This document shows positions 12,403 to 45,033 of a stretch of DNA of 48,213 nucleotides, piece after piece. Source of the DNA: Chloroflexota bacterium. Lineage in GTDB: Bacteria > Chloroflexota > Dormibacteria > Dormibacterales > Dormibacteraceae. The translations under genes and the position numbers were made by a program. Where the stretch lies: the NCBI GenBank assembly GCA_005889495.1, contig VBHA01000003.1:4627-52839 (forward strand), given 5' to 3'. The first letter of the stretch is position 1, and each line of letters starts with the position of its first letter. The notes below the pieces were generated by a model, which was not told where the DNA came from, ran no database searches, and saw only the letters and a list, made by a program, of their open reading frames with translations.

Positions 12403-12881
12403 GGATGGATTTCGTCGGTCTGCGGGTCGGTCTCGCGCCGGTGTCCGCGGCTTCGGAAGAAACGTTCCTCCAGCGGTTTCAGCGCGACCAGGATGATGAC
12501 CACGATCACCGTCACGTAGACCGCCACACCGTAATAGCCGAATCCGACCGCCATGCCCAACGAGGCGGCGACCCAGATCGAAGCAGCGGTCGTCAATCCA
12601 CGGACGAGCTCGCCCTGGCGCAGGATGCTGCCCGCGCCCAGGAAGCCGACGCCGGTGACGATCTGGGCCGCGATGCGCGTCGGGTCGACGGTCTTCGGGA
12701 AATCCGGGATGAGGCCCAGGCCCGTGAACATGCATGACCCCGCGCTGATCAGCGCCATCGTGCGCAGCCCTGCCGGGTGGCCGCGGAACTCGCGCTCGGC
12801 GCCGATCAGAAGACCGAGGGCGAGGGCGACCGTGACGCGGAAGGCGAGCTCGAGCTCGCCGCTGAGGTGCGTGTTGGTCAG
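12399..12881 (-). CDS. MgtC/SapB family membrane protein, apparent CTG start
   Basis: The first in-frame ATG (12758) would begin inside the protein and drop the family's conserved N-terminal helix. Upstream codons continue the family pattern without a stop: ELELAFRVTVALALGLLIGA, then ERE and AGLRT. The only plausible initiator is CTG at 12881-12879, which overlaps the stop of the BFN gene as CTGA. From there the protein is 160 residues with four to five transmembrane helices and the DPTRIAAQIVTGVGFLGAG motif. No ATG, GTG or TTG exists in frame before 12758. The role is membrane transport or ATPase modulation, unknown in detail. Confidence 0.78.
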   Translation of the reverse strand: MTNTHLSGELELAFRVTVALALGLLIGAEREFRGHPAGLRTMALISAGSCMFTGLGLIPDFPKTVDPTRIAAQIVTGVGFLGAGSILRQGELVRGLTTAASIWVAASLGMAVGFGYYGVAVYVTVIVVIILVALKPLEERFFRSRGHRRETDPQTDEIHP

Positions 12882-13474
12882 CCCCGGCCGGGGCGTCCTC
12901 CGGGCCGATCCTGGGCGCCGGGCTCGTCTTTGGCGCCCGGCTCGTCGGGAAGCTCGGGGAGGTCCAGGCTGTTCACGAAGTCGCGAAAGACCGCGAGGCG
13001 CTCCTCATCGACGACCGTCTCCGTCTTGTCCTTGTCACCCTCGAGCTCGTCCGCCTCGGGGATGATGCCGGCGGTCTCCATGACCTCCGAGGCGACGAAG
13101 ATCGGGCACTCGACGCGGACCGCGAGCGCGATCGCGTCCGACGGCCGGGCGTCGAAGTCGAGGTCGCGTCCATTCTGCTTCACGTAAAGACGCGCGTAGA
13201 ACACCTGGTCCGCGAGGCGCGTGACGACGATGCGCCTGACGCTGATGCCGAGGTCGCCGAATGCGGTGGCCATCAGGTCGTGCGTCAGCGGGCGGCCGAG
13301 TGCGTTGCCCGAGATCTTGGTCGCGATGGCCTGGGCCTCGAAGGAGCCGATCCAGATGGGGAGGTAACGGTCCGCCTCCTTCTCTTTGAGGATCACCAGG
13401 TGCTGGGCAGTCGGCATGTGGATGCGGATGCTGTCCACGGACACCTCGATGAGGTTCTTCATCCTCGGATCCAT
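12878..13474 (-). CDS. Bifunctional nuclease domain (DUF151) protein
   Basis: 198 residues. The DUF151/BFN core is clear: HLVILKEKEADRYLPIWIG, EAQAIATKISG, RPLTHDLM and ARPSDAIALAVRVECPIFVA. The C-terminal tail is acidic then Pro/Gly-rich and probably disordered. Proteins with this domain have been reported with nuclease activity in a few organisms; the bacterial role is not settled. It is the first gene of a minus-strand operon, divergent from polA across 63 bases. An ATG four codons in is an alternative start. Confidence 0.9.
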   Translation of the reverse strand: MDPRMKNLIEVSVDSIRIHMPTAQHLVILKEKEADRYLPIWIGSFEAQAIATKISGNALGRPLTHDLMATAFGDLGISVRRIVVTRLADQVFYARLYVKQNGRDLDFDARPSDAIALAVRVECPIFVASEVMETAGIIPEADELEGDKDKTETVVDEERLAVFRDFVNSLDLPELPDEPGAKDEPGAQDRPGGRPGRG

Positions 13475-13537
13475 TCTAGCCTTCGGTCCTCCAAGTCCCT
13501 GCTATTTGAACGCGCCAGCCCCTGAAGGGTGTCGAGC

Positions 13538-16246
13538 GTGCGTACGTACACTTCGAACGTGCCCAAGGGTAGGCGCGGGCGTGTGATTTTGATCGACGCC
13601 CACAGCCTCATCTATCGAGCGTTTTTCGCCCTCCCGCCGATGAGCACGTCGGACGGCCGGGTGACCAACGCCGTGTACGGCTTCACGTCGATGCTGGCGA
13701 TCGTCCTGGCGTCGCGACCCGAGTTCGCCATCGCCGCCTTCGACCTGGGCAAGCCCACCTTTCGCTCCGTGGAGTACAAGGAGTACAAGGCCGGCCGGCG
13801 CGCCATGCCGGAAGACCTGCGGCCCCAGCTGGAGATGGTGCGAGAGGTGCTCGGGGCGTTCTCGATCCCGATCTACGGCGTGGAGGGTTTCGAGGCGGAC
13901 GATGTGATCGGCACCCTGGCGCGGATCGCCGAGGAGCGAGGGCACGCGGTGACGATCGTCTCCGGCGACCTCGACTGCCTGCAGCTCGTCACCGAGTCGG
14001 TCGAGGCGCTGGTGCCTCGGCGAGGGATCACCGACACCTTTGTCTACGGTCCGGACCAGGTGCGCCAGCGCTATGGCTTCGAGCCGCCGCAGCTGGTCGA
14101 CTTCAAAGCCCTGAGGGGCGATACCTCGGACAACATCCCTGGGGTCCCCGGTGTCGGCGACAAGACGGCGGCCAAGCTCGTCCAGGATTACGTGACGGTG
14201 GAGACCCTGCTGGACCGCGTGGAGGAGCTGCCCGAGGGCCGGTTGAAAGCCTCCTTGAAGGCCAACTCGGACAAGGTGCGACTGGGCAAGCGGATGGTCA
14301 CGATCGTCCGCGATGTGCCGGTCGAGCTCGAGCTCGAAAACGCGCGCTGGAGCCGCTACGACTACGACGACGCGCGCCGGGTGTTCGACCACCTCGAGTT
14401 CCGCCAGCTGCTGACCCGCTTTCCGCCGCCGGACCAGGTCCCTGTCCAGCCGAGCCTTGCCTTTGAACCGGCGCCCCGGCCGGCCGGCCTTCGCATCATC
14501 GAGGACCCGACCGAGGCAGCCAGCCTCCTCGACGGCTCCCAAGACGTCGGCGTCTACACCTTCACCGAGGGCACCGGCCGAGGCTGCCGGATCTGCGGCC
14601 TCGGCGTCTCCAGCGGCGGCAACACCTTTTACGTCGCCCGCGCGGAGGCTATGGACGCGGTCGCGAGCACGCTGTCGGGCCGGCCGATCTCCGGGCACGA
14701 CGCCAAGGAGACCGAGCTTGCCCTTCGCTCGCTCGGCGGCGGGAAGCGCGATTGGGCGTTCAGCACCTTCCTGGCGGCCTACCTCCTCGGCGCAGGCTCG
14801 CGCGACCCGCGGCTCGAGGACCTCGCCCGCGAGTTTCTCGGCACCGAGCTCATCAGCACCGAGCAGCTGCTCGGCACCGGCCGTGCGGCGCGAAAGCCGT
14901 CCGCCATCCTCGAAGGCGAGGCCGCGGAGTTCTCCGCCCGCCGCGCCGAGGCGATCATCAACCTGCGGCCGAGGCTCGAGGCCGAGATGCGAAACCTCGG
15001 GGTCGACTACCTGTTCCACGAGATCGAGCTTCCGCTGGCCGGCGTGCTCGCGGACATGGAGACCGAGGGCGTCGCGATCGACGTGCCTTACCTCAAGCAG
15101 ATGCAGGACGAGCTCGGTGCGCAGCTCGCGGCGATCGAGTCGGAGGTCGAGCAGGTGGCGGGCGAGAAGTTCAACCTCAACGCGCCGCAGCAGCTGGCGA
15201 AGGTCCTCTTCGAAGACCTGCGCCTGCCGGTGGGAAAGCGGACGAAGACCGGCTACTCGACGGACGCCGACACCCTCGAGTCGCTGCGCGAGAAGCACCC
15301 GATCGTCGGCCTCATCCTGGAGCACCGCCAGCTGTCGAAGCTGAAGTCGACCTACGTCGACGCGCTGCCCCAGCTGGTCGATCCATTGAGCGGGCGCGTG
15401 CACACGTCGTTCGGCCAGGCGAGCACGGCGACGGGCCGCCTCGCATCGTCCAACCCCAACCTCATGAACATCCCGATCCGGACCGAGCTTGGACAGAGGA
15501 TCCGGCGTGCCTTCAAGGCAGGGCGGCCGGACCACGTCATGGTCTCGGCGGACTACTCGCAGATCGAGCTGCGGATCGCCGCTCACCTGAGCGGCGACCC
15601 CAGGCTCCTGGAGGCGTTTGCGGCCGGCCAGGACATCCACACGGCGACGGCCGCCGCCGTCTTCAAGATTCCGATCGAGGCCGTGAACCCGGACCAGCGC
15701 CGGCTCGCCAAGGTCGCGAACTTCGGCTCGATCTATGGACAGGGCGAGTACGGGTTGTCGCAGCAGCTCGGCATCACCGGCGACGTCGCCCGCGAGTTCC
15801 TCGGCCAGTACTGGTCCACCTACTCACACCTGCGCGAATACCTCGACGAGGTGCGGCGCAAAGCGCGCGAGGAGGGATTCGTGGTCAGCGCCACGGGCCG
15901 GCGCCGCGCCATCCCCGACCTCCGCTCGCCGAACTATCAGCTGCGCAGCGCGGCCGAGCGCATGGCCATCAACTTTCCGATGCAATCGCTCGCCGCGGAC
16001 ATCATCAAGATCGCGATGGTGCGGCTGCATCGCGAGATCGAGGCGGACGAGATCGAGGGCCGCATGCTGCTCCAGGTCCACGACGAGCTGCTTTTCGAGG
16101 TGCCGCGTGGCGAGCTCGACCAGTTCGCGGAGAAGGTGCCGCGGATCATGACCGGCGCCTACGAGCTGGAGACGGGGATCGAGGTGGAGATGAAGGCGGG
16201 CCCCAACTGGGCCGACATGAAGAAGCTCGCGGTCGTTCGTGCCTGA
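13538..16246 (+). CDS. polA: DNA polymerase I, proofreading domain apparently inactive
   Basis: 902 residues from the GTG at 13538, chosen because AAGGG lies 8 bases upstream; a GTG at 13529 is also in frame. The N-terminal 5'-3' exonuclease domain starts VILIDAHSLIYRAFFALPP and has EGFEADDVIGT and the GVPGVGDKTA helix-hairpin-helix. The central exonuclease-like domain has lost the DxE motif (VGVYTFTEG where VAFDTET is expected) and other metal ligands. The polymerase domain has motif A SADYSQIELR (near 669), the O-helix RRLAKVANFGSIYG (near 720) and motif C QVHDELLFEV (near 845). It acts in gap filling for excision repair and Okazaki maturation. Confidence 0.96.
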   Translation: MRTYTSNVPKGRRGRVILIDAHSLIYRAFFALPPMSTSDGRVTNAVYGFTSMLAIVLASRPEFAIAAFDLGKPTFRSVEYKEYKAGRRAMPEDLRPQLEMVREVLGAFSIPIYGVEGFEADDVIGTLARIAEERGHAVTIVSGDLDCLQLVTESVEALVPRRGITDTFVYGPDQVRQRYGFEPPQLVDFKALRGDTSDNIPGVPGVGDKTAAKLVQDYVTVETLLDRVEELPEGRLKASLKANSDKVRLGKRMVTIVRDVPVELELENARWSRYDYDDARRVFDHLEFRQLLTRFPPPDQVPVQPSLAFEPAPRPAGLRIIEDPTEAASLLDGSQDVGVYTFTEGTGRGCRICGLGVSSGGNTFYVARAEAMDAVASTLSGRPISGHDAKETELALRSLGGGKRDWAFSTFLAAYLLGAGSRDPRLEDLAREFLGTELISTEQLLGTGRAARKPSAILEGEAAEFSARRAEAIINLRPRLEAEMRNLGVDYLFHEIELPLAGVLADMETEGVAIDVPYLKQMQDELGAQLAAIESEVEQVAGEKFNLNAPQQLAKVLFEDLRLPVGKRTKTGYSTDADTLESLREKHPIVGLILEHRQLSKLKSTYVDALPQLVDPLSGRVHTSFGQASTATGRLASSNPNLMNIPIRTELGQRIRRAFKAGRPDHVMVSADYSQIELRIAAHLSGDPRLLEAFAAGQDIHTATAAAVFKIPIEAVNPDQRRLAKVANFGSIYGQGEYGLSQQLGITGDVAREFLGQYWSTYSHLREYLDEVRRKAREEGFVVSATGRRRAIPDLRSPNYQLRSAAERMAINFPMQSLAADIIKIAMVRLHREIEADEIEGRMLLQVHDELLFEVPRGELDQFAEKVPRIMTGAYELETGIEVEMKAGPNWADMKKLAVVRA

Positions 16247-16259
16247 GGCGCTGACTTTC

Positions 16260-16322
16260 CCGGATCGTCCGGACCATCCGGCCTTCAGCTCATCGAGATG
16301 TTCAGTCAGTCCGGACTATCCG
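16260..16322. repeat. TCCGGA-centred palindrome, one and a half copies, between polA and mutM
   Basis: 16260-16281 is a 22-base inverted repeat with half-site CCGGATCGTCC. It differs from the perfect copy at 20818-20839 only at two symmetric positions. 16308-16322 (AGTCCGGACTATCCG) reproduces the centre and right arm of that same palindrome exactly and ends 4 bases before the mutM GTG. The same motif therefore occurs three times, always in a gap just upstream of a gene. Confidence 0.6.
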
Positions 16323-16326
16323 AGCT

Positions 16327-17268
16327 GTGCCTGAGCTTCCGGAAGTAGAGACGATCGTCGCCGACCTGCGTCCGCACCTCGTCGGCCGGACCATCGCGCG
16401 CTGCGAGCTGAGCTTTCGGACCATCGTGCGCCATCCGGAGCCGGAGGAGTTCGTCGACGCGGTGGTCGGGATGCGCATCGAATCCGTCGCGCGGCGGGGC
16501 AAATACATTCTGATTCGGCTTGTCCCCGGCCCCGGGCCGGGCTCGCGCCCCGGCCCCTCCGGCCCTGCCCCTCCGCCGGCTCTGCCGGCACCTCCCCATG
16601 AATGGGGAGGAAAAGGCCGCTTCCCCATGAATGGGGAGGAGGAGGACGTGTTGCTGGTCGTGCATCTCGGCATGACCGGGCAGCTGCGCCTGGTCGACGA
16701 GGTCACGCCGCTCGAGAAGCACACGCACGCGGTTTTCTTTCTCGATGACGGTCGGCAGCTGCGCTATCGCGACCCGCGCCGTTTCGGCCGCCTGCTGGTC
16801 GGCACGCAAGAGGCGCTGCTGGCGTCGAAGAAGATGCCGCGCCTTGGGCCGGAGCCGATCGACATGGAGTTCCAGGCCGAGCAGCTGTACCGGGAGCTGA
16901 AGCGCCGGCGCGCGCCGCTGAAGGCAGTGCTGCTCGACCAGAAGGCGATCGCCGGCGTGGGCAACATCTACGCCGACGAGTCGCTGCATCGAGCGCGGCT
17001 CCGACCCGGCCGCTTGGCGAACACCGTGAGCAAGAAGTCCGCGCGCCGGCTCCACGAATCGCTGCGCGAGTCGCTCCTGGTCGCGATCGCGAACCGCGGC
17101 AGCTCCGTGGACACGTACCGCGACGCGTGGGGCGAGGCCGGCGGCCAGCAGGAGAAGCTCCTCGTGTACGGCCGCGCCGGGGAGCCGTGCTTCACGTGCG
17201 GGAGGCCGCTGAGCTCCACGCGCATCGCCGGCCGAACCACGGTCTTCTGCCGCCGTTGCCAGCGGTAA
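16327..17268 (+). CDS. mutM: Formamidopyrimidine-DNA glycosylase with an internal repeat-derived insertion
   Basis: 313 residues, about 40 longer than usual. It removes oxidised purines such as 8-oxoguanine. The GTG start gives PELPEVETI, whose Pro1/Glu2 are catalytic after Met removal. The conserved RRGKY lysine follows, then HLGMTGQL, the helix-two-turn-helix region (GVGNIYADESL) and a four-Cys zinc finger (CFTCGRP...CRRC). Residues about 67-107 (Pro/Gly-rich, then PPHEWGGKGRFPMNG) are encoded by a palindromic repeat inserted in frame at the turn between RLIL-type and LLVVHLG strands. The enzyme may tolerate this because a loop is extended. Confidence 0.93.
   Translation: MPELPEVETIVADLRPHLVGRTIARCELSFRTIVRHPEPEEFVDAVVGMRIESVARRGKYILIRLVPGPGPGSRPGPSGPAPPPALPAPPHEWGGKGRFPMNGEEEDVLLVVHLGMTGQLRLVDEVTPLEKHTHAVFFLDDGRQLRYRDPRRFGRLLVGTQEALLASKKMPRLGPEPIDMEFQAEQLYRELKRRRAPLKAVLLDQKAIAGVGNIYADESLHRARLRPGRLANTVSKKSARRLHESLRESLLVAIANRGSSVDTYRDAWGEAGGQQEKLLVYGRAGEPCFTCGRPLSSTRIAGRTTVFCRRCQR
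16567..16640. repeat. 45-bp palindromic element plus second palindrome, inside mutM
   Basis: 16567-16611 matches the intergenic element at 22268-22312 in length and layout: GCCCCTCC, a small hairpin (GCCGGC-TCT-GCCGGC), then CCTCCCCATGAATGGGGAGG. A second copy of the last palindrome, starting TTCCCCAT, follows at 16621-16639. The preceding 40 bases are also C/G-rich and low in complexity. This is a REP-like dispersed repeat that has entered a gene in frame. Confidence 0.85.
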
Positions 17269-17348
17269 CGGCCCGGGCGGAGATCCTCGACGGATCTTCG
17301 GCGCCCATGCAGCCGATCTGCGTCGTTGCGGCCTCCGCTCCTCGTCAC

Positions 17349-17371
17349 CCCCGCGCAACCACGGCGCGGGG
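17349..17371. terminator. GC-rich hairpin in the mutM-PAP2 gap
   Basis: CCCCGCGC and GCGCGGGG pair around a 7-base loop. Flanking GCTCCTC and GAGGAGTGC could extend the stem with interruptions. The hairpin lies 80 bases after the mutM stop. There is no T-run. The rest of the 193-base gap (17269-17461) shows no gene. Confidence 0.4.
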
Positions 17372-17461
17372 ACCCCGGGAGGAGTGCGCTCGCTCCGGTG
17401 CTCGACCGCGCCTAGCATCTCAGCCGCCTGTGCACCGAATCTCTCGCCGAGGTCCCCTCCC

Positions 17462-18121
17462 GTGCCGTTAACTCCTCGCCTTGTCGGAATCGCGATCCTC
17501 AGTGTCCTTTTCATCGCGCTTACCATCGCCATCACCGCGGGCGTCTTCGACAGCCTCGACCTGCAGATCGCGCAGGACACGCACCAGCTGTGGCAGCCCT
17601 CGCTCCATCCTCTTTTCCAGGTGATCGCCGAGCTCGGCGGCCTCGAGCTGACAACCGTCCTGATGCTCGCGCTGACGTTGTACCTGTGGCGCGGAGGCTT
17701 CGGCTCGGACGCGCTGGTCTTCATCGCCTTCATCGCCGCGCAGGGGTTCGAGCTGTTCTACAAGCTCAACCTTCATCACCCGGCGCCGCCCCTTTCGCTG
17801 GCGCAGTCCGACGGTCCGAGCATCAGTGAAGCCTTCGCCTCGAACGCAGGGCTCGGCAACAGCTTTCCGAGCGGGCACATGCTGCGCGCGGTGATCGTGT
17901 ACGGGCTCATCGCATTCGTGATCGCGCGCCTGTCGCCTTCGCGCGGCGTCCGGACGGGCGCTGTGATCGGGGCGATCGCCGTGATCGCCGTCCTCGCCTT
18001 CGACCGCCTGTACATGGACGTGCACTGGGAGTCGGACGTCATCGGCGGCGTGGTGCTGGGCGCGATCGCGCTCCTGGCCGGCACCGTCTGGCTCGATAGA
18101 CCCAGAAAAACGGAGAATTAG
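17462..18121 (+). CDS. PAP2-type membrane phosphatase
   Basis: 219 residues from a GTG with GAGGT 8 bases upstream; an ATG at 17384 would add a non-hydrophobic extension lacking coding character. Five to six transmembrane helices carry the PAP2 signatures in slightly divergent form: KLNLHHPAPP (motif 1, K-x6-RP-like), NSFPSGHMLRAV (motif 2, PSGH) and RLYMDVHWESDVIGG (motif 3, SR-x5-H-x3-D-like). It probably dephosphorylates a lipid or undecaprenyl pyrophosphate at the outer membrane face. cutA follows 7 bases later. Confidence 0.88.
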   Translation: MPLTPRLVGIAILSVLFIALTIAITAGVFDSLDLQIAQDTHQLWQPSLHPLFQVIAELGGLELTTVLMLALTLYLWRGGFGSDALVFIAFIAAQGFELFYKLNLHHPAPPLSLAQSDGPSISEAFASNAGLGNSFPSGHMLRAVIVYGLIAFVIARLSPSRGVRTGAVIGAIAVIAVLAFDRLYMDVHWESDVIGGVVLGAIALLAGTVWLDRPRKTEN

Positions 18122-18128
18122 GGCGGCG

Positions 18129-18461
18129 ATGGGGGAGAAGGCGGTCCTGATCATGGTCACGACGGGCGCGCGGGACGATGCCGAGCGCCTCGGCGAGGCC
18201 CTGGTGATCGAGCACCTGGCGGCGTGCTGCTCGGTCGTGCCGACCGTGCACTCGATCTACTACTGGGACGGCCAGCTGCAGCGGGAGCACGAGGCCCTCC
18301 TCCTCGTCAAGACCCTGGAGTCCCAGGCCCAGGCGGTCCAGGAGTTCGTCCTGAGCCGCCACGAGTACGAGCTCCCCGAGATCCTGCAGGTCTCGATCGA
18401 AGGCGGCTCGTCGAAGTACATGGAATGGCTGGAGAAGCAGGTAGCGAAACCGGGCCACTGA
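18129..18461 (+). CDS. cutA: CutA family divalent-cation tolerance protein
   Basis: 110 residues, full length. CutA hallmarks are GEALVIEHLAACCSVVPTV, SIYYWDGQLQREHEALLLVKT, then HEYELPEILQV and YMEWLEKQ. CutA forms very stable trimers with a PII-like ferredoxin fold. A link to copper tolerance is debated and cannot be judged from here. Confidence 0.94.
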   Translation: MGEKAVLIMVTTGARDDAERLGEALVIEHLAACCSVVPTVHSIYYWDGQLQREHEALLLVKTLESQAQAVQEFVLSRHEYELPEILQVSIEGGSSKYMEWLEKQVAKPGH

Positions 18462-18514
18462 CCGTTAAGTAGGGCGAGCGCCAACACTTAGACTGCGGGC
18501 AAAGGAGGGCCGGG

Positions 18515-20794: not shown

Positions 20795-20817
20795 CCTCGA
20801 TGAGCCACGCCGAACAT

Positions 20818-20839
20818 CCGGATAGTCCGGACTATCCGG
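20818..20839. repeat. Perfect 22-bp palindrome upstream of moeA
   Basis: Half-site CCGGATAGTCC is followed directly by its reverse complement GGACTATCCGG. It lies 23 bases after the ABC-transporter stop and 50 bases before the moeA ATG. Near-identical sequences precede mutM at 16260 and 16308. Confidence 0.65.
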
Positions 20840-20889
20840 TGAATTGCTCAAGGAAGTGTTCCGTTAGTCGCGACTGTCCGAGGTTCTAG

Positions 20890-22312: not shown

Positions 22313-22314
22313 CC

Positions 22315-26449: not shown

Positions 26450-29327
26450 CCAGATCACGATCCGCGGGGCCCGCGAGCACAACCTCAAGAACGTCACCCT
26501 TTCGATCCCGCGCGACAGGCTGATCGTCTTCACCGGGCTTTCAGGCTCCGGTAAGTCCTCGCTCGCCTTCGACACGATCTACGCGGAGGGGCAGCGCCGG
26601 TACGTCGAGTCGCTTTCCGCATACGCGCGGCAGTTCCTCGGCCAGATGGAGAAGCCCGACGTCGACATCATCGAGGGGCTCTCGCCGGCGATCTCGATCG
26701 ACCAGAAGGGGACTTCCAAGAACCCCCGGTCGACAGTGGGCACCGTGACCGAGATCTACGACTACCTGCGCCTGCTGTACGCGCGGGTCGGGCATCCGCA
26801 CTGCCCGGTCTGCGGCCGCGAGGTGCGCCGGCAGACGGTCGAGCAGATGGCGGACCACGTGGAGAAGCTGCCGAAGGGCACCCGGATCATGGTCCTCGGC
26901 CCAGTCGTCAAGGGCCGCAAGGGCGAGTACCGCGCGCTGATCGACGACGTGCGGCGCTCGGGTTTCGTCCGCGTGCGCGTGGACGGAAGCCTCTACGAGA
27001 TCGGCGAGAAGATCCCGATGGACAAGAACAAGAAGCACGACGTCCAGGTCGTCGTCGACCGGATCGTGGTCGGGCCGGAGCAGCGCACCCGGCTCGTCGA
27101 CTCGATCGAGACCGCGGCCCGGCTTGGCGGAGGCTCGGTGATCATCGCGCCCGTCGACCGTGGTGAAGAGATCAACATGTCGCAGGACTACGCCTGCCCG
27201 TACGACGGCACCAACGTTCCCGAGCCCGAGCCGCGCAACTTCTCGTTCAACAACCCGCACGGGGCGTGCCCGGTGTGCACGGGGCTCGGCTTCCAGCTGG
27301 TCGTCGACGCCGACCTGGTGGTACCAGACCCCTCGCTCTCTCTGCGCCAGGGCGCGGTCGCGGCCTGGAGCCGCTCCCAGTTCTTCTACCCGGAGCTGCT
27401 CGAGTCCGTGAGCAAGTACTTCGGCATCGACATGGACCGGCCATGGTCGAAGTTGACCAAGCAGCAGCAGAACATGCTCCTCAACGGCACCGGCGAGAAG
27501 AAGATCCGCTTCGGCTACAAGAACCAGTACGGGCACTCGCGCTGGTACGAGGCTCCATTCGAGGGCGTGGTCGCCAACCTGCAGAGGCGCTACGAGGAAA
27601 CCCAGTCGGAGTACCTGAAGGCGGAGCTCGAACGGTACATGTCGGACAAGCCTTGCCCGACGTGTAAGGGAACGCGCCTCAAGCCCGAGTCGCTGGCGGT
27701 GACGGTCAGCGGCCACAACATCGCCGAGGTCTGCCGGCTGGCGGTGAGCAGGGCGATCGACTTCTTCGACAAGCTCGACCTCACCGAGCGCGAGCAGCTG
27801 ATCGCGCGCGGGATCATGAAGGAGATCCGCGAGCGGCTGCAGTTCATGATCGACGTGGGGCTCGACTACCTGACCATCGAGCGTCCCGCCAACACCTTGA
27901 GCGGCGGCGAGTCGCAGCGCATCAGGCTGGCGACGCAGATCGGCTCCAAGCTGATGGGCGTTCTCTACATCCTCGACGAGCCGTCGATCGGGCTGCACCA
28001 GCGTGACAACCGGCGACTGATCAACACCTTGATCAGCCTTCGCGACCTCGGGAACACCTTGATCGTGGTCGAGCACGACGAGGAGACGATTCGCTCGGCC
28101 GACTACATGGTCGACATCGGCCCGGCGGCCGGCGAGCACGGCGGTGAGATCGTGGCCGCGGGCCCGGTCGACAAGGTGCTCCGCGACCCGCACTCGATCA
28201 CGGCGGCTTACCTGCGCGGCGACAGGATGATTCCGGTCCCGCCGCGCCGCCGGAAGGGCAACGGCAAGCAGCTCGTGATCCGCGGCGCGCAGGCGAACAA
28301 CCTGAAGAACATCGACGTCACAATCCCGCTCGGAGCTTTCGTCGCGGTCTCAGGGGTGAGCGGCTCTGGCAAGTCGTCCCTGATCACCGACATCCTGAGC
28401 CGCAAGGTCGCGCAGCACTTCTACCGCGCGAAGGAGCGGCCGGGGCCGCACAGCGCGGTCGAAGGCCTGGACCATCTCGACAAGGCCATCGACATCGACC
28501 AGTCCCCGATCGGCCGCACGCCGCGGAGCAACCCCGCGACCTACACGGGCATGTTCACCTACATCCGCGACCTCTTCGCGACCCTCCCGGAGGCGAAGAT
28601 GCGCGGCTACAAGCCTGGGCGCTTCAGCTTCAACGTCAAGGGCGGTCGGTGCGAGGCGTGCCAGGGCGACGGCATCATCCAGATCGAGATGCAGTTCCTG
28701 CCGGACGTGTACGTACCCTGCGAGGTCTGTCACGGCACTCGCTACTCGCGCGAGGTGCAGGAGGTCAAGTTCCGCGGCCACTCCATCTCCGACGTGCTGG
28801 AGATGACGGTGGACGAGGCGCTCGAGGTCTTCGAAAACGTGCCGCCGATCAAGACCAAGCTGCGCACGCTGCATGACGTCGGGCTGGGCTACATCCGGCT
28901 CGGGCAGCCGGCGACGCAGCTCTCGGGCGGCGAGGCGCAGCGGGTCAAGCTCTCCGCGGAGCTGTCCCGCCGGGACACCGGACGGACGCTCTACCTGCTC
29001 GACGAGCCGACGACCGGGCTCCACTACGCGGACGTGGAACGCCTGCTGGCGGTGCTGCACCGGCTCGTCGACCATGGCAACACCGTGGTCGTGATCGAGC
29101 ACAACCTCGACGTGCTGAAGACCGCGGACTGGGTGATCGACCTGGGGCCGGAGGGCGGTGAGAAAGGCGGATACGTGATCGCGGAGGGCACGCCCGAGCA
29201 GCTGGCCGCCAACCGCGAGTCGGCCACCGGGCAGTACCTCGGCGCGCCGCTCGCGAAGGCGCGCAAGACCCCGGTGTCGGCCAACGGAGCGAGTCGCTCC
29301 AGGCGCGCTCGGGTCGCGGTCGGCTGA
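26439..29327 (+). CDS. uvrA: Excinuclease ABC subunit A
   Basis: 962 residues, full length; the damage-sensing ATPase of nucleotide excision repair. It has two ABC modules: Walker [16 protein letters not shown] and [14 protein letters not shown], and signatures [12 protein letters not shown] and [11 protein letters not shown]. Zinc-binding Cys sets are at CPVCGRE, CPTCKG...CPVC and CEACQGDG...CEVCHG. It lacks an obvious SOS box of its own and sits downstream of two thioesterases by overlap. Confidence 0.98.
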
Positions 29328-35360: not shown

Positions 35361-35365
35361 ACTCG

Positions 35366-37083: not shown

Positions 37084-37110
37084 CGCGCCCGAGCGTAATA
37101 GATCAGGGCG

Positions 37111-38328
37111 CTAGACGATGAGGTCCTTCAGCTCGCGTGGGTAGTCCGTCATCACGTGGCGCCCGTCCTCGGTGATGACGACCGTGTCGGAGTGGCGAAA
37201 CCCGCCGAGCTCCTTGATGTAGACGCCGGGCTCGACCGTGAAGACCATGCCCGGCTCGAGCACGGCGTCGTCGCCGCGGTCGAGGAACGGAGCCTCGTGT
37301 CCCTCCAGGCCGATCGAGTGGCCGGCGTGGTGGCGCAGGTTGTCAGCGACACCGAGCTCCTCCGCGAGGCGCACGGTCGCAAGCTCGACCTCGCCGGCGG
37401 GAACTCCCGGGGCCATGGTCTCGATCGCCCGCGTCTGCAGCGCGAGCATGGCGGCGAACGCGCGCTCCTGCTCCGCGGTCGGCGGGCCGACGACCATGGT
37501 CCGCTCCAGCTCGCTCCGGTACCCGTCGATGTTGGCCCCGGCGCCGCTCACGAGCACGTCACCTGGCTGGATGCCGTGGCCCTTGACGAAGCCGTGCGGC
37601 ATCGCGGTCGAGCGACCGGCGACGAACATGGCGATGAAGCCCGTGTCGTCGTTGCCTCTCGGCCGCCAACCTGGCATCTCGTGGACCATCTCGAAGAGGG
37701 TCTCGTTGGCGGGCGGCGTGTAGCACTCCATCTCGGTCTTGCCGGCCTGGATCGCGCCCTGCATCCGGCGGTGGCCGCGCACCGCCCAGTCGCAGCTGAG
37801 CTGGATGCACTCCAGCTCGACCTTTGACTTCACGCGCCGCAGCGACTCGACGATCATCTCGGCGTCGAACGGCTCGACCCCGGTCAGGTCGCTGAGGCGC
37901 GGCCCGCGATAGCCCCAGTAGGGAACGTAGCCGTCGTGGTCGGCGCCGGTGCGGTGCGGCCGGGCCTTCATCTCGACCAGCACCTCGGCCACGGTCTCCA
38001 TCGGGTGCTCGGAGCCTGGGTACTCGAAGTAGACGCGGACCTGGTCGACCGTGGTCGCCGACTCCGCGTGCTCTTTCTCGACCGCAGGCACGACCATCGC
38101 CGACTGCCCGCTCGAGCCCACCAGCACCGCGATGGGCCGCTCGGTCGGGATGTGATGAAAGCCGGTCAGGTAAGCGACACGGGCGGGATAGAAGATGCAG
38201 AGCGCATCGAGCCCGGCGGCCTGCATTCCCGCCGCCACGCTCTCCCTCCTCGCCTGGTATTCGGCCTGGGAGATCTGAGGAAGCTGTTGGTGCCGCGGGA
38301 CCGTGGCTGCTTTCCTAGTACGCGGCAA
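37111..38328 (-). CDS. M24-family 'pita-bread' protein, creatinase-like, metal site not conserved
   Basis: 405 residues from a TTG overlapping the E1-beta stop; no ATG or GTG fits before the conserved N-terminal domain (EYQARRESVAAGMQAAGLDA). The C-terminal M24 fold has HHAGHSIGLEGHEAP and FTVEPGVY. Metal-dependent peptidases carry Asp, Asp, His, Glu, Glu. Here the first Asp is Ser (VLVSGAG), the second is Glu (SELERT) and the last Glu is Ser (FRHSDTV). The ELERT and FRHSD contexts resemble creatinase, a metal-free amidinohydrolase of this fold. A C-N hydrolase for a small amino compound, taken up by the adjacent permease, is a reasonable inference. Confidence 0.82.
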   Translation of the reverse strand: MPRTRKAATVPRHQQLPQISQAEYQARRESVAAGMQAAGLDALCIFYPARVAYLTGFHHIPTERPIAVLVGSSGQSAMVVPAVEKEHAESATTVDQVRVYFEYPGSEHPMETVAEVLVEMKARPHRTGADHDGYVPYWGYRGPRLSDLTGVEPFDAEMIVESLRRVKSKVELECIQLSCDWAVRGHRRMQGAIQAGKTEMECYTPPANETLFEMVHEMPGWRPRGNDDTGFIAMFVAGRSTAMPHGFVKGHGIQPGDVLVSGAGANIDGYRSELERTMVVGPPTAEQERAFAAMLALQTRAIETMAPGVPAGEVELATVRLAEELGVADNLRHHAGHSIGLEGHEAPFLDRGDDAVLEPGMVFTVEPGVYIKELGGFRHSDTVVITEDGRHVMTDYPRELKDLIV

Positions 38329-39298
38329 GCTTGCGCATCGCCTCCGCGATCTTCCGGGGGCTCGGCATGAAGAACTCCTCCTGGGGGGTGTTGAATGGCA
38401 TGGCCGGGATGTCCGGCGCGGCCACGCGCACGACCGGGCCGTCAAGGTCCTCGAACGCGTGCTCCGAGATGATGGCTGACACCTCCGCCCCAAACCCGCC
38501 CGTGAGGTTGTCCTCGTGCACGACCATCGCCTTGCCGGTCTTCCTGACCGAGGCCAGGACGGTGTCGCGGTCGAGCGGGGCCAGCGTGCGGAGGTCCACG
38601 ACCTCGACGCTCACGCCCTCGGCCTCGAGCTCCTGCGCCGCCTCGAGACAGTGGTGGCTCATCAACCCCCATGCGAAGCAGCTGAGGCTGGTCCCTTCCC
38701 GGCGCACCACCGCGGGACCGATCTCGACCAGGTGATCGCCGTCAGGGACCTCCTCGGCGATGAGGCGGTAGACCTTCTTGTGCTCCAGGAACAGCACGGG
38801 GTCGGGGTCGCGCACGGCGGACTTCAGGAGCCCATGCGCATCGGCCGGCGTGCTGGGCACCACCACCTTGACCCCCGGCACGTGGGCGTAGAAGGCCTCG
38901 ATCGACTGGGAGTGGTACAGGCCGCCGTGCACGCCGCCGCCGAACGGCGCCCGGATCACGATCGGCACCGACCAGTCGCCGTTCGAGCGGTAACGCGTAC
39001 GCGCCGCCTCGCTGACGATCTGGTCGAAGGCCGTGTGGATGAAGTCGGCGAACTGGATCTCGGCGATCGGGATGAGGCCGTTCAGCGCGGCCCCGATGGC
39101 GACGCCGACGATGGCCGACTCGGCCAGGGGCGTGTCGAGCACACGAGACTCGCCGAAGCGCGCGTACAGGCCGTCGGTCGCCCCGAAGACGCCACCTTTG
39201 CGGCCCACGTCCTCGCCCATGACCAGGACCCGATCGTCGCGTTCCATCTCCTCGCCGATGGCCGCGCGCACCGCCTCGATCATGCGCATCTCCGGCAT
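38315..39298 (-). CDS. 2-oxoacid dehydrogenase E1 component, beta subunit (orphan)
   Basis: 327 residues, full length; with an alpha subunit it would bind thiamine diphosphate and decarboxylate pyruvate or a branched-chain 2-oxoacid. Features: VLVMGEDVGRKGGVFGATDG, RVLDTPLAESAIVG (the Glu that activates ThDP), EIQFADFIHTAFDQIV, PFGGGVHGG-LYHSQS. Neither E1-alpha nor E2 lies next to it. The downstream gene is the M24 protein, coupled by overlap. The ATG at 39286 is an alternative start. Confidence 0.92.
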   Translation of the reverse strand: MPEMRMIEAVRAAIGEEMERDDRVLVMGEDVGRKGGVFGATDGLYARFGESRVLDTPLAESAIVGVAIGAALNGLIPIAEIQFADFIHTAFDQIVSEAARTRYRSNGDWSVPIVIRAPFGGGVHGGLYHSQSIEAFYAHVPGVKVVVPSTPADAHGLLKSAVRDPDPVLFLEHKKVYRLIAEEVPDGDHLVEIGPAVVRREGTSLSCFAWGLMSHHCLEAAQELEAEGVSVEVVDLRTLAPLDRDTVLASVRKTGKAMVVHEDNLTGGFGAEVSAIISEHAFEDLDGPVVRVAAPDIPAMPFNTPQEEFFMPSPRKIAEAMRKLAAY

Positions 39299-39410
39299 TG
39301 CGAAAATATTGTGGCGCGCGTGGCAACATCGCGACTCCTGAGGGTCGGTCCGGCGTTAGACTCGAAGGCGAAAGGGGGGAGGTTTTATCACTTCCCTGGA
39401 GGTACGTGCG

Positions 39411-40328
39411 ATTTCGTTCTCGGCCGAGGTCAAGAACGAGATGGCTGGGCTTCTACCTGCGCGGCCCTGCTGTCAGCTGAGCGAGTTGCTCGGCATCTAC
39501 TTCGGCTCGCGCGGACGCCTGCTGGGCGACCAGCGAGGGCGCTCCGCGTATTTCTCGCTTCTGCGCAACCACGTAGCGCGCAAGGTTGTCCGGCTGGGTC
39601 GGGCGGTCGACCAGATGGACGCCAAGTACCAGGCTGTGAAGACCCGCAAACGGATGTCCTTCTTCATCGAGCTCGCCCTTCCGACCGAGCTCGTCCCCGC
39701 GTTCTCCCAGCCGCCGGTGCAGGCGACGCCGGACGCCGCGTGCGACCGCAAGGCGATGCTTCGAGGCCTGTTCCTCGGATGCGGGTCGGTCAACGCGCCG
39801 AACACCCGCTACCACCTCGAGTTCGTCGCCCCGACACGTTCGTGGGGCAGGTCGATCGCGTCGATGCTCGAGAGCTCGGGCGTCAAGGCGGGGATCACCG
39901 AGCGGGGTGGCCAGGCCGTCGTGTACGTGAAGGACGGGGACGGGATCGTGCGGTTGCTGTCGACGATGGGCGCCAACCGGGCCGTGATGGAGTTCGAGAA
40001 CGTCAGGGTTGTCCGCGAGGTGAGCGGCGAGGTCAACCGGCGCCTCAACTTCGAGACGGCCAACATCGGCAAGACGATCGGCTCGGGGTTGCGCCAGGCC
40101 GTGGCGATCGAGGCGCTGGAGGCCGAGGGGAAGCTCGCAACCCTGCCGCCGGCGCTGCGTGAGATGGCGCGGTGGCGGCGCGCGAACCCGGAGCTGAATC
40201 TCGGCGAGCTCGCGGATCGTATGAACCTCTCCAAGTCCGCGGTCAACCATCGCCTTCGGAGAATCCAACAGGTCGCGGACTCGAACGGCGGCTCGTCGCG
40301 CTCCAAGGAACAACGCCGCTCCGCCTAA
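39411..40328 (+). CDS. whiA: WhiA family sporulation/cell-division regulator, apparent ATT start
   Basis: 305 residues if started at ATT 39411. WhiA proteins begin MSFS-x-x-VK-x-E; here ISFSAEVKNEM is encoded from that ATT, and GGAGG (39398-39402) lies exactly 8 bases upstream. The first in-frame ATG (39441) would delete these ten residues and has no ribosome-binding site. The LAGLIDADG-like domain follows (CCQLSELLGIYFGSRG, KAMLRGLFLGCGSVN), then a C-terminal helix-turn-helix (ELADRMNLSKSAVNHRLRRI, near 265-285). It regulates division/sporulation genes in Actinobacteria. Gap follows at 10 bases. Confidence 0.9.
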   Translation: MSFSAEVKNEMAGLLPARPCCQLSELLGIYFGSRGRLLGDQRGRSAYFSLLRNHVARKVVRLGRAVDQMDAKYQAVKTRKRMSFFIELALPTELVPAFSQPPVQATPDAACDRKAMLRGLFLGCGSVNAPNTRYHLEFVAPTRSWGRSIASMLESSGVKAGITERGGQAVVYVKDGDGIVRLLSTMGANRAVMEFENVRVVREVSGEVNRRLNFETANIGKTIGSGLRQAVAIEALEAEGKLATLPPALREMARWRRANPELNLGELADRMNLSKSAVNHRLRRIQQVADSNGGSSRSKEQRRSA

Positions 40329-40331
40329 CAT
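40326..40331 (+). promoter_or_regulatory. Candidate -10 element of gap (leaderless start)
   Basis: TAACAT, which includes the whiA stop codon, ends exactly 7 bases before the gap ATG, and no Shine-Dalgarno sequence is present. The spacing equals that at aroC (2426) and at the aminotransferase gene (TAGGAT, 47425-47430). Confidence 0.35.
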
Positions 40332-40338
40332 TTGCCGC

Positions 40339-41345
<1,007 letters not shown>

Positions 41346-41349
<4 letters not shown>

Positions 41350-42512
41350 AAGCATCGATCACCGCCGTCGACGTCGCCGGCAAGCGCGTCCTGGTGCGTG
41401 AGGACCTGAACGTGCCGATGAAAGACGGCGAGATCACTGACGATTCCAGGGTGCGAGCGGCCGCACCCACGGTCCAGCACCTGGCGCAGCGCGGCGCGCG
41501 CGTCGTGGTGATGTCCCACCTGGGGCGGCCGAAGGACCGCGAGAGTGAGCTCTCCCTCAAGCCTGTCGCTGCCGACCTCGGACGGCGCGTGGGCCGGGAC
41601 GTGCAGTTCGCGGAGGATTGCGTCGGCGACAAGGCGACGGCGGCCGCAGGACGCCTGCAGTCGGGGCAGATCCTGCTGCTCGAGAACGTGCGCTATCACA
41701 AAGAGGACGAGGCCAACGACTCCGGGTTTGCTCGTGGGCTGGCGGCCCTGGGCGACCTCTACGTCAACGACGCGTTCGCCGCCTCCCATCGCGCCCATGC
41801 CTCGGTCGTCGGCGTCGCCGCCTACCTTCCCGCGTACGCGGGAGAGCTCATGGAGGCCGAGCTCGCGGCGCTGCACCGCGCGCTCGACGACCCGAGGCGC
41901 CCCCTCGTCTCGGTCGTAGGCGGCGCCAAGGTGTCGACCAAGGTCGGCGTCCTGCGCAGCCTGCTCGCCAAGGTCGACGTGCTGATGGTCGGCGGCGCCA
42001 TGGCGAACACGTTCTTCAAGGCTCGCGGCTGGCCGACTGGCGCGGGGCTGGTCGAGGACACCGCGCTGGACGAGGCCAACGACGTCGCCCGCCAGGCGGG
42101 CGACAAGCTCGTCCTGCCGCTCGACGTGGTGTGTGCGCGGAAGATGCAGGCGGGGCAGGCTCTGCGCGTGATGGAGGCCGACCACGTCGAGCCGGGATGG
42201 ATGGGCCTGGACATCGGCCCCAGGTCCGTCGCGCTCTTTCGCGACCGGCTGCGCGGTGCGGGCACGGTGATCTGGAATGGGCCGGTCGGCGTGGCGGAGA
42301 TCAAAGACTTTGCGGATGGCACGAAGGCTGTCGGCGAAGCGGTCGCGGCGACAGGCGGCTTCACGCTGGTCGGCGGCGGCGACACGGTGGCCGCGATCGA
42401 ATCGATGGGCCTCGCGGGGCGGTTCTCGCATGTGTCGACCGGAGGCGGCGCCACGCTCGAGTACCTGGAAGGCAAGGAGCTGCCCGGCATCGCGATCCTC
42501 AAGGAGGCATAG
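41346..42512 (+). CDS. pgk: Phosphoglycerate kinase, probable CTG start
   Basis: 388 residues from the CTG at 41346, which overlaps the gap stop as CTGA and has GGAG 5 bases upstream. Homologues start MKK/MK-x-I-x-D-V-x-x-K-V-L-V-R, and here CTG AAA GCA gives (M)KASITAVDVAGKRVLVRED exactly. The only standard start in frame is a GTG at 41292, which would add 18 residues encoded inside gap. Signatures: DLNVPMKDGEI, SHLGRPK, LLLENVRYHKEE-type, GGAKVSTKVGVL, NGPVGVAE, and GGGDTVAAI. Makes ATP and 3-phosphoglycerate. Confidence 0.95.
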
Positions 42513-43307
42513 GTGTCCTCGTCCCGTCCGCCGGGGATGCCGCTGGTCGCCGCCAACTGGAAGATGAATCCCAACAACCTCGACGACGCGCTCGACCTCG
42601 TGCGTGGCGTCATGGCGGTGGCGCGCGGCCAGGCCGACCGGGTCGAGGTCGCGATCTTTCCTCCCTTCCCATGGCTCACCGCCGTCTCCGACCTCCTGGT
42701 CGATTCCGGCGTCAAGCTCGGCGCGCAGAACGTCTTCTGGGAGATGGCCGGGGCGTACACCGGCGAGGTCTCGCCGCCGATGGTCAAGGCCCTGTGCCAG
42801 TGGGTGATCGTCGGCCACTCCGAGCGCCGCCTCCACCTCGGCGAAACCGACGACATGGTCGCCAGGAAGACCGCGGCCGCGCTGTCGTGCGAGCTGGGCG
42901 TGATCATGTGCGTGGGCGAGCTTGCCGACCACTACGACGCCGGAACCTCGGACCAGGTCGTGTCGGCGCAGGTCCGGGCCGCCCTGGCGCGGTGCTCGGC
43001 GGACGACTCGGCGCGCCTGGTGATCGCATACGAGCCGGTGTGGGCGATCGGGAGCGGACGCAACGCCGACCCGGAGCACGCCTACAAGACCATGCGCCTG
43101 ATCCGCAAGATCGTGGGCGAGATGATCGGGGCCGGCGCCGCGCGCAAGGTCCGCATCCTCTACGGCGGCAGTGTCAAGGCGGACAACGTGCAGTCGTACG
43201 TCGAGCTGCCCCTGTGCGACGGTGTCCTGGTCGGGGGGGCGAGCCTCGACGCGGACGAGTTCGCCCATATCGTCAAGGTGACATCGGAGGTCTACGGCCA
43301 TCGCTAG
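42513..43307 (+). CDS. tpiA: Triosephosphate isomerase
   Basis: 264 residues from the GTG directly after the pgk stop, supported by GGAGG 5 bases upstream. Catalytic residues are Lys17 in NWKMN, His102 in VGHSERR and Glu174 in [11 protein letters not shown]. The phosphate loop YGGSVKADN and [10 protein letters not shown] are intact. Interconverts dihydroxyacetone phosphate and glyceraldehyde-3-phosphate. Confidence 0.97.
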
Positions 43308-44079
43308 CCCCTCTGAGCCGGGCACGCTGATCCTGCTCCGCCACGGCGAGAGCACATGGAACCTCGAGAACCTGTTCACGGGCTGGACCGACGTCCCCCT
43401 GAGCGAGCGTGGGGTCAGGGAGGCGGTCGAGGCCGGGCGGCTCATGAAGGAGGCGGGACTGAGTCCCGCGGTCGTGCACGAGTCGCTGCTGGTGCGTGCC
43501 ATCCAGACCACCCAGCACGCCCTCGCGGAGATGGAGATGCCGTGGGTCCCGGTGAAGCGGACCTGGCGCCTGAACGAGCGCCACTACGGTGCGCTGCAGG
43601 GCCTCAACAAGCAGGAGACGGCGGAGAAGTACGGCGAGGCCAAGGTCAAGCTCTGGCGTCGCAGCTATGACGAGCGCCCGCCGGACCTCGACCCCAGCGA
43701 CGCACGACATCCATCGCATGACCCGCGCTACGCGGGGCTGCCGCCGGAGCTGTTGCCGAACTCCGAGTGCCTGAAAGACGTGGTCGATCGGATGCTGCCC
43801 TACTGGTACGACGCGATCGTGCCGGACCTGCACGCGCTGCCGTGCGTACTCGTTTCGGCCCACGGCAACAGCCTTCGCGCCCTGGTCAAGCACCTGGACG
43901 GGCTCGGCGACGAAGAGGTGGTGGAGCTGAACATCCCCACCGGCGTGCCCCGGGTCTACGAGCTGGACGCGGACCTGCGGCCCCGCTCGCATCGCTACCT
44001 CGGCGACCCGGCCGAGGTCTCCAGGCGCGCTGCCGCCGTCAAAGCGCAAGCGTCGGGGTCGAAATCAACCAGCAACTAG
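43300..44079 (+). CDS. gpmA: 2,3-bisphosphoglycerate-dependent phosphoglycerate mutase, apparent ATC start
   Basis: 259 residues if begun at ATC 43300. The frame opens after a stop at 43279 and has no ATG, GTG or TTG until 43444, which lies past the catalytic [10 protein letters not shown] (His15) and [19 protein letters not shown] (43286-43290) stands 9 bases before the ATC, inside the end of tpiA. The rest is typical Gpm[40 protein letters not shown]. The C-terminus is Ser/Ala-rich. Converts 3- to 2-phosphoglycerate, continuing the glycolytic run. Confidence 0.92.
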
Positions 44080-44129
44080 ACTGGTTTCCGTAATCAAGGG
44101 CTAATCCAAGAGCAAAGGGGGGTCGTGTC

Positions 44130-44744
44130 ATGGCATTCGAAGTTCCCAAGCTTCCGTACGCGTTCGATGCGCTCGAGCCACACATCGACGCGAAGACGAT
44201 GGAGATCCACCACGACAAGCACCACGCCACCTATGTGACGAACGCCAACGCCGCGATCGAGAAGCACCCCGAGCTGGGCAGGAAGACGGTCGAAGACCTG
44301 CTCTGGGGGATCAACAACATCCCGGAGGACATCCGGACGGCGATCCGCAACAACGCCGGCGGCCACGCCAACCACTCCATCTTCTGGTCGATCATGGGTC
44401 CGGGCGGCGGTGGCAATCCCACGGGACGCATCGCCGACGCGATCAAGACCACCTTCGGTGGCTATGACCAGTTCAAGGAGCAGCTGCAGAAGGCCGCGGT
44501 CGGGCAGTTCGGCAGCGGCTGGGCGTGGCTCGTCGCGGACCGGCAGGGAAAGCTGGCGGTCAAGGGCTACCCCAACCAGGACAGCCCGTTCATGGACGAG
44601 CTGACGCCGCTCCTGGGCGTCGACGTGTGGGAGCACGCTTACTACCTCAAGTACCAGAACCGGCGCGCCGACTACGTGACCGCGTGGTTCAACACTCTGA
44701 ACTGGGAAGCGATCAATGCGCGGTTCGGCTCGGTCTGGGCCTAG
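44130..44744 (+). CDS. sod: Superoxide dismutase, Mn/Fe type
   Basis: 204 residues, cytoplasmic. Metal ligands are His27, His82, Asp165 and His169 ([23 protein letters not shown]). The GGHANH context and the NQDSP glutamine favour manganese. AAAGGGG precedes the ATG. It lies 50 bases after gpmA and may have its own promoter. The run whiA-gap-pgk-tpiA-gpmA then resumes with secG. Confidence 0.96.
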
Positions 44745-44763
44745 CGGCCGGGCGCCCGCTCGG

Positions 44764-44769
44764 TAAAAT
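44764..44769 (+). promoter_or_regulatory. Candidate -10 element of secG
   Basis: TAAAAT ends 9 bases before the secG ATG; there is no Shine-Dalgarno sequence. The element may serve a leaderless transcript. Confidence 0.3.
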
Positions 44770-44778
44770 CCGGGTTCC

Positions 44779-45033
44779 ATGGCAAAGCTCCAGAACGCGC
44801 TCGTCATCGCGGAAGCTGTCCTGGCGGTCCTTCTGATGGCCGGCGTGCTCATCCAGACGCCGAAGGCCTCGGGCCTGGGCGGCACCATCGGCGGAGGCGA
44901 CTCCGGGCTCGGCGGCGGCTACCGCACCCGCCGAGGGCTGGAGCGCCAGATCTACTGGACCACGTGGGTCCTGGTCGCCGCGTTCCTCGTGTGCTCGATC
45001 GCCAACGTCTGGGTGACGACTCATCTCCATTAG
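44779..45033 (+). CDS. secG: Preprotein translocase subunit SecG
   Basis: 84 residues with two transmembrane helices (about 7-25 and 63-80) and the glycine-rich, conserved link LIQTPKASGLGGTIGGG-type loop between them. It belongs to the SecYEG export channel. Placement after the glycolytic genes is typical of high-GC Gram-positives and Chloroflexota-like bacteria. The next gene's start overlaps its stop. Confidence 0.93.
   Translation: MAKLQNALVIAEAVLAVLLMAGVLIQTPKASGLGGTIGGGDSGLGGGYRTRRGLERQIYWTTWVLVAAFLVCSIANVWVTTHLH

What the first reader, a model, noticed from the sequence alone, without database searches (positions are those of the whole stretch)
12879..45031. Cluster of genes with non-canonical start codons (CTG, ATT, ATC)
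Six genes lack a usable ATG, GTG or TTG where the conserved N-terminus must begin: mgtC-like (CTG 12881, minus strand), MFS (ATT 29327), whiA (ATT 39411), pgk (CTG 41346), gpmA (ATC 43300) and the peptide-binding lipoprotein (ATT 45029 or ATC 45023). For whiA and gpmA a full GGAGG sits 8-9 bases before the codon. In mgtC, pgk, MFS and the lipoprotein the codon overlaps the previous stop, so re-initiation is possible. Such starts are normally very rare (infC is the textbook case). Several in 33 kb suggest relaxed start selection in this lineage, or heavy reliance on Shine-Dalgarno sequences and coupling. pgk is the weakest case, since a GTG exists 54 bases upstream.
Basis: partly seen in the sequence, partly recalled or inferred. 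Interest (0 to 1): 0.75.

Follow-up and report, generated by a model that had tools for sequence, protein, structure and literature searches.

The report
Conserved AUU start codon of whiA
Several genes in this soil bacterium begin with codons that gene finders do not accept as starts, and in one of them, the regulator gene whiA, the rare AUU-type start is shared by nearly all family members examined, which suggests it is a kept brake on protein production.

Summary
The window is from a Dormibacteria-type soil MAG. All six genes lack a workable ATG/GTG/TTG at the conserved N-terminus, and relatives sharpen each case. whiA is the strong one: AUU (AUC in one branch) in 40 of 42 family rows, GGAGG 6-10 nt upstream in 32 of 33 distinct contexts, although internal Ile codons of whiA are ATC in 254 of 269. 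pgk starts at CUG inside a CUGA stop/start overlap in 25 of 29 relatives; the upstream GTG is excluded in L015 and L021. The lipoprotein has a conserved AUH (ATC 45023). MFS and mgtC homology runs far upstream of their first canonical codons. In gpmA many relatives have ATG where the window has ACG, so that case is recent. More CUG starts in CUGA overlaps occur elsewhere (alr, rnhA, aroE, rsmA). Best reading: two known devices, an infC/pcnB/ccpN-type weak start with a strong SD, and termination-reinitiation. Lineage-wide loss of stringency is not shown: 4 of 141 families outside the window against 0 of 58 in a control. IF3, initiator tRNA and anti-SD look normal. One surprise: family members with a readable 16S carry two compensatory base-pair swaps in helix 28, beside the P site.

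The parts
39398..39402 (+). GGAGG Shine-Dalgarno of whiA, 8 nt before the start codon
   Evidence: sequence; GGAGG in 32 of 33 distinct family contexts
39411..39413 (+). ATT start codon of whiA
   Evidence: ATT/ATC in 40 of 42 family rows; 18 of 33 contexts have an in-frame stop upstream and no canonical codon between
39411..40328 (+). whiA coding region
   Evidence: TIGR00647 E 4.9e-50
40339..41349 (+). gap, ATG start (canonical comparison)
   Evidence: ATG in relatives; NCBIfam hits
41346..41348 (+). CTG start codon of pgk, overlapping the TGA of gap (CTGA)
   Evidence: CTG in 25 of 29 relatives; no canonical alternative upstream in L015 and L021
41346..42512 (+). pgk coding region
   Evidence: PF00162 E 9.3e-147
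42513..43307 (+). tpiA, GTG start
43286..43290 (+). GGAGG before gpmA
   Evidence: sequence
43294..43302 (+). gpmA start region: ACG 43294 (ATG in many relatives) and ATC 43300, inside the tpiA end
43300..44079 (+). gpmA coding region (from the ATC)
   Evidence: NF010713 E 7.9e-108
45023..45025 (+). ATC, most likely start of the peptide-binding lipoprotein; the gene then overlaps the last 11 nt of the short upstream ORF (SecG-like by eye, stop TAG 45031-45033)
   Evidence: ATH at this place in 15 of 16
45023..46498 (+). SBP_bac_5 lipoprotein
   Evidence: PF00496
29327..30766 (+). MFS transporter, ATT at 29327 sharing one base with the stop of the upstream ORF (UvrA-like by eye)
   Evidence: 23 best full-length orthologue rows align from residue 3-14; PF07690
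12399..12881 (-). mgtC-like gene, start CTG 12881 or ACG 12872
   Evidence: 27 of 28 orthologues align from residue 1-11; four start contexts, own included; PF02308

Best explanation
These genes really start at near-cognate codons, by two ordinary devices. (1) whiA (and infC, and tatD in G079) combine an AUU/AUC/AUA codon with a Shine-Dalgarno sequence, a very strong one in whiA: initiator tRNA pairs with one mismatch, IF3 rejects most such complexes, and the gene is held at a low level that follows the IF3-to-30S balance, as in E. coli infC and pcnB and S. aureus ccpN. (2) pgk, alr, rnhA, aroE, rsmA and perhaps mgtC use CUG in a CUGA overlap, and the lipoprotein and MFS use AUH at the previous stop: the ribosome that ends the upstream gene is already placed over the codon and re-initiates despite the mismatch. 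Shown: positions, conservation, lack of canonical alternatives, strong SD in whiA. Inferred: use of the codon with fMet, low output, IF3 dependence, re-initiation.
For: whiA: AUH in 40 of 42 family rows, best read on the tree as one gain and one loss; 32 of 33 contexts with GGAGG 6-10 nt upstream, 18 of 33 with no canonical codon down to an in-frame stop; ATT kept although 94% of internal Ile codons are ATC. pgk: 25 of 29 CTG, no canonical alternative in L015 and L021, CTGA also at the gap/pgk junction of f3 genomes L256, L257. Other CTGA starts whose family profiles begin within about seven residues of the CTG: rnhA, aroE, alr, rsmA, thiE. infC near-cognate in phylum members read. Precedent: PMC13009471 passages report conserved AUU/AUA starts with extended SD giving about 10% of AUG output in RPMI medium; PMC4611024 passages say IF3 discriminates against codons other than AUG, GUG, UUG.
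Against: No expression or N-terminal data exist here. whiA has a normal ATG or TTG in genus g4 (L187, L191), so the brake is not indispensable; the placing of g4 inside the AUH group has support 88/89 only, and 8% of bootstrap trees need one change. L005, the one context without GGAGG, has an in-frame GTG three codons upstream, and L010 one nine codons upstream. Exact codons for mgtC, MFS, gpmA and the tyrosine phosphatase stay open. thiE has a canonical codon 17 codons upstream.
Confidence: 0.62

Rival explanations
1. The lineage has a relaxed start-codon check throughout, for instance because of its altered 16S helix 28, and the cluster is one sign of it.
For: Family f1 has A921/G923 with U1396/C1393 in 16S (two compensatory pair swaps). 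The A921/G923 side is in 6 of 6 f1 genomes where the site was found, the universal form in 15 of 15 other class genomes where it was found; 6 of 400 phylum genomes carry it, all f1. Non-canonical starts recur elsewhere.
Against: Ribosomal protein genes are almost all canonical; 4 of 141 families against 0 of 58 is not significant; CTGA pgk also occurs in f3 genome G017 with universal 16S (L256; L246); g4 carries the swap but a canonical whiA. IF3 complete, initiator tRNA and anti-SD look normal.
Confidence: 0.15
2. Ordinary background: every GC-rich genome has a few such starts that gene callers hide, and the window only happens to hold several.
For: Control difference not significant; infC-type starts widespread in the phylum; gpmA is a recent ATG-to-ACG change in an overlap.
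Against: whiA AUU is shared by most of the family with few changes; no CTGA start with a recognisable product in 0.36 Mb of control f11 against several families in f1 (the f1 sample is about five times larger).
Confidence: 0.18
3. The true starts are canonical codons elsewhere (upstream extension, downstream truncation) or the sequences are wrong.
For: pgk has an in-frame GTG 54 nt upstream in the window and most relatives; MFS has GTG 29408; whiA in L005 has a GTG three codons upstream.
Against: In-frame stops with no canonical codon between (18 of 33 whiA contexts; pgk L015, and L021 back to its stop); homology upstream of the first canonical codon; same codons in many independent assemblies.
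Confidence: 0.05

Closest known systems
infC (IF3) near-cognate start and its autoregulation; pcnB AUU in E. coli (recalled; the E. coli papers seen only as reference entries)
   Same: AUU/AUC/AUA start with SD, expected low output and IF3 sensitivity; infC of this genome itself appears to start at ATA
   Different: whiA encodes a DNA-binding regulator in front of the gap-pgk-tpiA-gpmA genes, not a translation or RNA enzyme; IF3 sensitivity untested
S. aureus ccpN (AUA) and cvfC1 (AUU), PMC13009471 (passages)
   Same: regulator with a conserved near-cognate start plus strong SD; ccpN also acts on central carbon genes
   Different: unrelated protein and phylum; measured there, only inferred here
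ATGA/TGATG termination-reinitiation, PMC6728339 (start of abstract in listing)
   Same: 4-nt stop/start overlap in operons
   Different: first letter of the start is C (CTGA), conserved in pgk

Membership tests
Attenuating near-cognate start (infC/pcnB/ccpN type), for whiA | AUU/AUC/AUA at the conserved N-terminus | tested here: met
Attenuating near-cognate start (infC/pcnB/ccpN type), for whiA | no usable canonical start in frame | tested here: met
   18 of 33 contexts closed by a stop without a canonical codon; the other 15 are open or have canonical codons upstream, nearest in L005 (3 codons) and L010 (9 codons)
Attenuating near-cognate start (infC/pcnB/ccpN type), for whiA | strong SD at proper spacing | tested here: met
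   32 of 33 GGAGG, 6-10 nt
Attenuating near-cognate start (infC/pcnB/ccpN type), for whiA | conserved across relatives | tested here: met
   40 of 42 family rows, some of them the same genome twice; exception genus g4
Attenuating near-cognate start (infC/pcnB/ccpN type), for whiA | output lower than with AUG and dependent on IF3 | not testable with these tools
   needs reporter assays
Termination-reinitiation pair, for pgk | start codon overlaps upstream stop | tested here: met
   CTGA at 41346-41349
Termination-reinitiation pair, for pgk | translation depends on upstream gene | not testable with these tools
   needs reporter assays
Lineage with relaxed start selection | non-canonical starts more frequent than in relatives | tested here: inconclusive
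   4 of 141 against 0 of 58 families
Lineage with relaxed start selection | lesion in IF3, initiator tRNA or anti-SD | tested here: not met
   IF3_N and IF3_C matched over their length; initiator-type tRNA in L047; CCTCC 3' end in f1 loci L247, L248; no 16S found in the window's own MAG
Lineage with relaxed start selection | altered P-site rRNA | tested here: inconclusive
   helix 28 pair swaps; ATTAGATACCC and CATGAAG segments unchanged; effect unknown

The most novel reading that the evidence does not exclude
The family evolved a 30S neck (helix 28 pairs 921:1396 and 923:1393 swapped) that checks the start codon less strictly, so that AUU, AUC and CUG became tolerable starts and one of them, whiA AUU, was captured as a family-wide regulatory setting that links a WhiA-type regulator and the glycolytic genes behind it to IF3 and ribosome supply.
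Probability: 0.1. Interest if true: 0.82.

Novelty: new variant of a known kind. Interest (0 to 1): 0.55.

Why it matters
A near-cognate start kept in a transcription-regulator gene across most of a family adds a clear case to the short list of conserved AUU starts, and conserved CUG starts in CUGA overlaps suggest that overlap may stand in for a canonical codon. Gene callers that accept only ATG/GTG/TTG would cut or mis-start these proteins in genomes of this family. The family's helix 28 swap makes the role of the 30S neck in start selection testable in E. coli ribosomes. Three searches on this lineage's or whiA's start codons found no paper in the held library.

Tried and rejected
Automatic genome-wide detection: reading substitution patterns and codon usage upstream of the first canonical codon mostly picked antisense ORFs and upstream-gene frames; only curated items are used. 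In one search, 40 of 572 genes in 15 families were flagged; by eye whiA, lipoprotein, gpmA, pgk, alr and a tyrosine phosphatase are start cases, one family is a formate dehydrogenase with an in-frame TGA, and the rest are artefacts. In one search, 7 of 141 f1 families were flagged, 4 judged real (tatD, alr, infC, tyrosine phosphatase); 4 of 58 f11 families, none judged real. One search leaves out the window and the whiA loci and misses cases such as truA and oppB; the judging was mine and not blind. In one search, 25 f1-relative CTGA junctions: 17 pgk, 2 alr, 2 thiE, rnhA, aroE, rsmA, 1 unknown; own genome 6, of which pgk, mgtC and a response regulator look real; f11 2, none recognisable; f2-f4 3, one TatD-like. 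The prints were cut, so I saw them in part.

WhiA_N (PF10298) found nothing in 101 class genomes, so TIGR00647 was used. A first WhiA motif scan missed minus-strand loci and was repeated. A loss of IF3 fidelity was considered and dropped. infC of f4 and f11 genomes was not found by my motif; f4 shows ATA by eye; f11 was not read.

Recalled, not from a call: E. coli rRNA numbering, E. coli infC and pcnB biology beyond the cited passages, WhiA biology, and the by-eye names SecG, UvrA and oppB.

Full report
Where it lies. The window is G000:C55:4627-52839 of a 2.73 Mb, 201-contig MAG, 86.7% complete. Its nearest named relatives are soil MAGs titled Chloroflexi bacterium CF_x or Candidatus Dormiibacterota/Dormibacteraeota. 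The genome tool's labels f1 (own family), f2-f4 (same class) and f11 (another family of the phylum) are used below.

whiA. The codon at 39411 is ATT, 8 nt after GGAGG. The NCBIfam WhiA profile starts at its fourth residue. In one search all 31 family loci with a whiA N-terminus have ATT (ATC in L030), while the distant Clostridia and Lactococcus loci have ATG, GTG or TTG. The phylum search and the 30 loci read show ATT or ATC in f1 genera g1, g2, g3, g5, g102 and g104, ATG or TTG in f1 genus g4, and ATG at or a few codons before the aligned place in most f2, f3 and f11 sequences (L188 and L197 unclear, L201 not readable). Other f1 genera were not read. On the WhiA tree the label AUH needs two changes, with the g4 pair beside the ATC pair at support 88/89; 8% of bootstrap trees need one. 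Of 33 distinct contexts 32 have GGAGG at 6-10 nt, and 18 have an in-frame stop upstream with no canonical codon between; the one context without GGAGG, L005, has a GTG three codons upstream and may start there. The codon does not drift as an internal Ile codon would: internal Ile codons of whiA are ATC 254, ATT 11, ATA 4, the start is ATT 38, ATC 2. Some rows are the same genome in two collections, so the number of independent genomes is lower than 40.

pgk. CTG 41346 overlaps the gap stop as CTGA. It is CTG in 25 of 29 relatives; L027 has TTG, L030 GTG, and L028 and L029 are unresolved. The GTG 54 nt upstream lies in the conserved gap end and is in frame in most genomes, but L015 has an in-frame stop two codons before the CTG, and L021 has no canonical codon in the 37 codons back to its stop. 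Two f3 genomes also show CTGA at the gap/pgk junction with a longer N-terminus, and f1 genus g4 has GTGA (L255-L257).

Lipoprotein, gpmA, MFS, mgtC. The lipoprotein has ATH in the end of the upstream ORF in 15 of 16 sequences, and no canonical codon at all between stop and lipobox Cys in 4 of 16, the window among them. gpmA lacks a canonical codon in 3 of 25; many others have ATG exactly where the window has ACG, so either ACG 43294 or ATC 43300 (9 nt after GGAGG) serves. For MFS the 23 best full-length orthologue rows align from residue 3-14, before the GTG at residue 28; four of these rows carry in-frame stops somewhere, and their start codons were not read.

Elsewhere. By eye, infC is ATA or ATC in f1, ATC in f2, ACG in f3 and ATC/ATT/ATA in the phylum members read. 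The family profiles of rnhA, aroE (both G079), alr, rsmA (G111), thiE and tatD (G079) begin within about seven residues after non-canonical codons; alr shows CTG in four of four genomes. truA has CTG in G000 and G181 but GTG or TTG in the other f1 genomes shown. Against this, I found no other non-canonical start in the S10-spc-alpha genes of 20 genomes (79 of 631 entries were flagged automatically, nearly all from overlapping frames), and the control comparison is 4 of 141 against 0 of 58 families, not significant.

Machinery. IF3 matches both Pfam domains over their length, an initiator-type tRNA with a C1/A72 end and a GGG/CCC anticodon stem lies in L047, and the 16S 3' ends of f1 genomes G071 and G027 carry CCTCC. 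No 16S was found in the window's MAG. Those two 16S genes differ from the universal form at two pairs of helix 28; the Rfam alignment of L248 shows both partners changed and pairing kept. In the class search 21 of 110 genomes held the site: 6 of 6 in f1 have the swapped form, 15 of 15 in f2-f4 the universal form. Of 400 phylum genomes 6 carry the swapped form, all f1 (how many of the 400 hold a 16S was not counted). Because the gain of the swap and of whiA AUU may each be a single event, and g4 has the swap with a canonical whiA, the link is a hypothesis only.

How it most likely works. For whiA I infer a weak start rescued by a strong SD, IF3-sensitive and low in output, as reported for S. 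aureus ccpN and cvfC1 at about 10% of AUG in RPMI and up to 30% for ccpN in BHI (PMC13009471, passages) and explained by IF3 discrimination (PMC4611024, passages). For pgk and the other overlap genes I infer termination-reinitiation (PMC6728339, start of abstract only); mycobacteria rarely use CUG (PMC11260477, passages). In Salmonella 4 of 26 new N-terminal forms used CUG and 1 AUU (PMC11005335, passages), so such starts are not unheard of.

Verdict. The kind is known; the genes, the conservation in the family and the CUGA variant appear new in the searches made. Relaxed initiation in the lineage is possible but unproven.

Noticed in passing
L247 (G071), L248 (G027) 16S; rows: Family f1 has GGAATAGGCGG and GCACTCACCGCCC instead of the near-universal GGAATTGACGG and GTACACACCGCCC: two compensatory base-pair swaps in helix 28, at sites (recalled) used by common universal 16S primers.
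   Followed up: partly
L048 (G000:C2) 547-2209 and L003, L005, L006, L008-L011, L020: Formate dehydrogenase-like ORF (by eye) with an in-frame TGA right before HAPSVAGL, probably a selenocysteine codon.
   Followed up: no
L216, L217 (f3 genomes G017, G103): infC appears to start at ACG in family f3, an unusual near-cognate even for infC.
   Followed up: no
MFS orthologues in G160:C30, G095:C165, G175:C83 and G111:C41: In-frame stop codons inside the matched MFS frame of four family genomes.
   Followed up: no
L161, L166, L175 (oppB-like permease genes, by eye): ABC permease whose conserved N-terminus starts upstream of the first canonical codon in three loci but has ATG or TTG in L172; another possible non-canonical start.
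   Followed up: no
L116 (G000:C40) 11152-13143: GH42 beta-galactosidase whose profile begins just after an ACG/ATC, with the first canonical codon 26 codons into the frame.
   Followed up: partly
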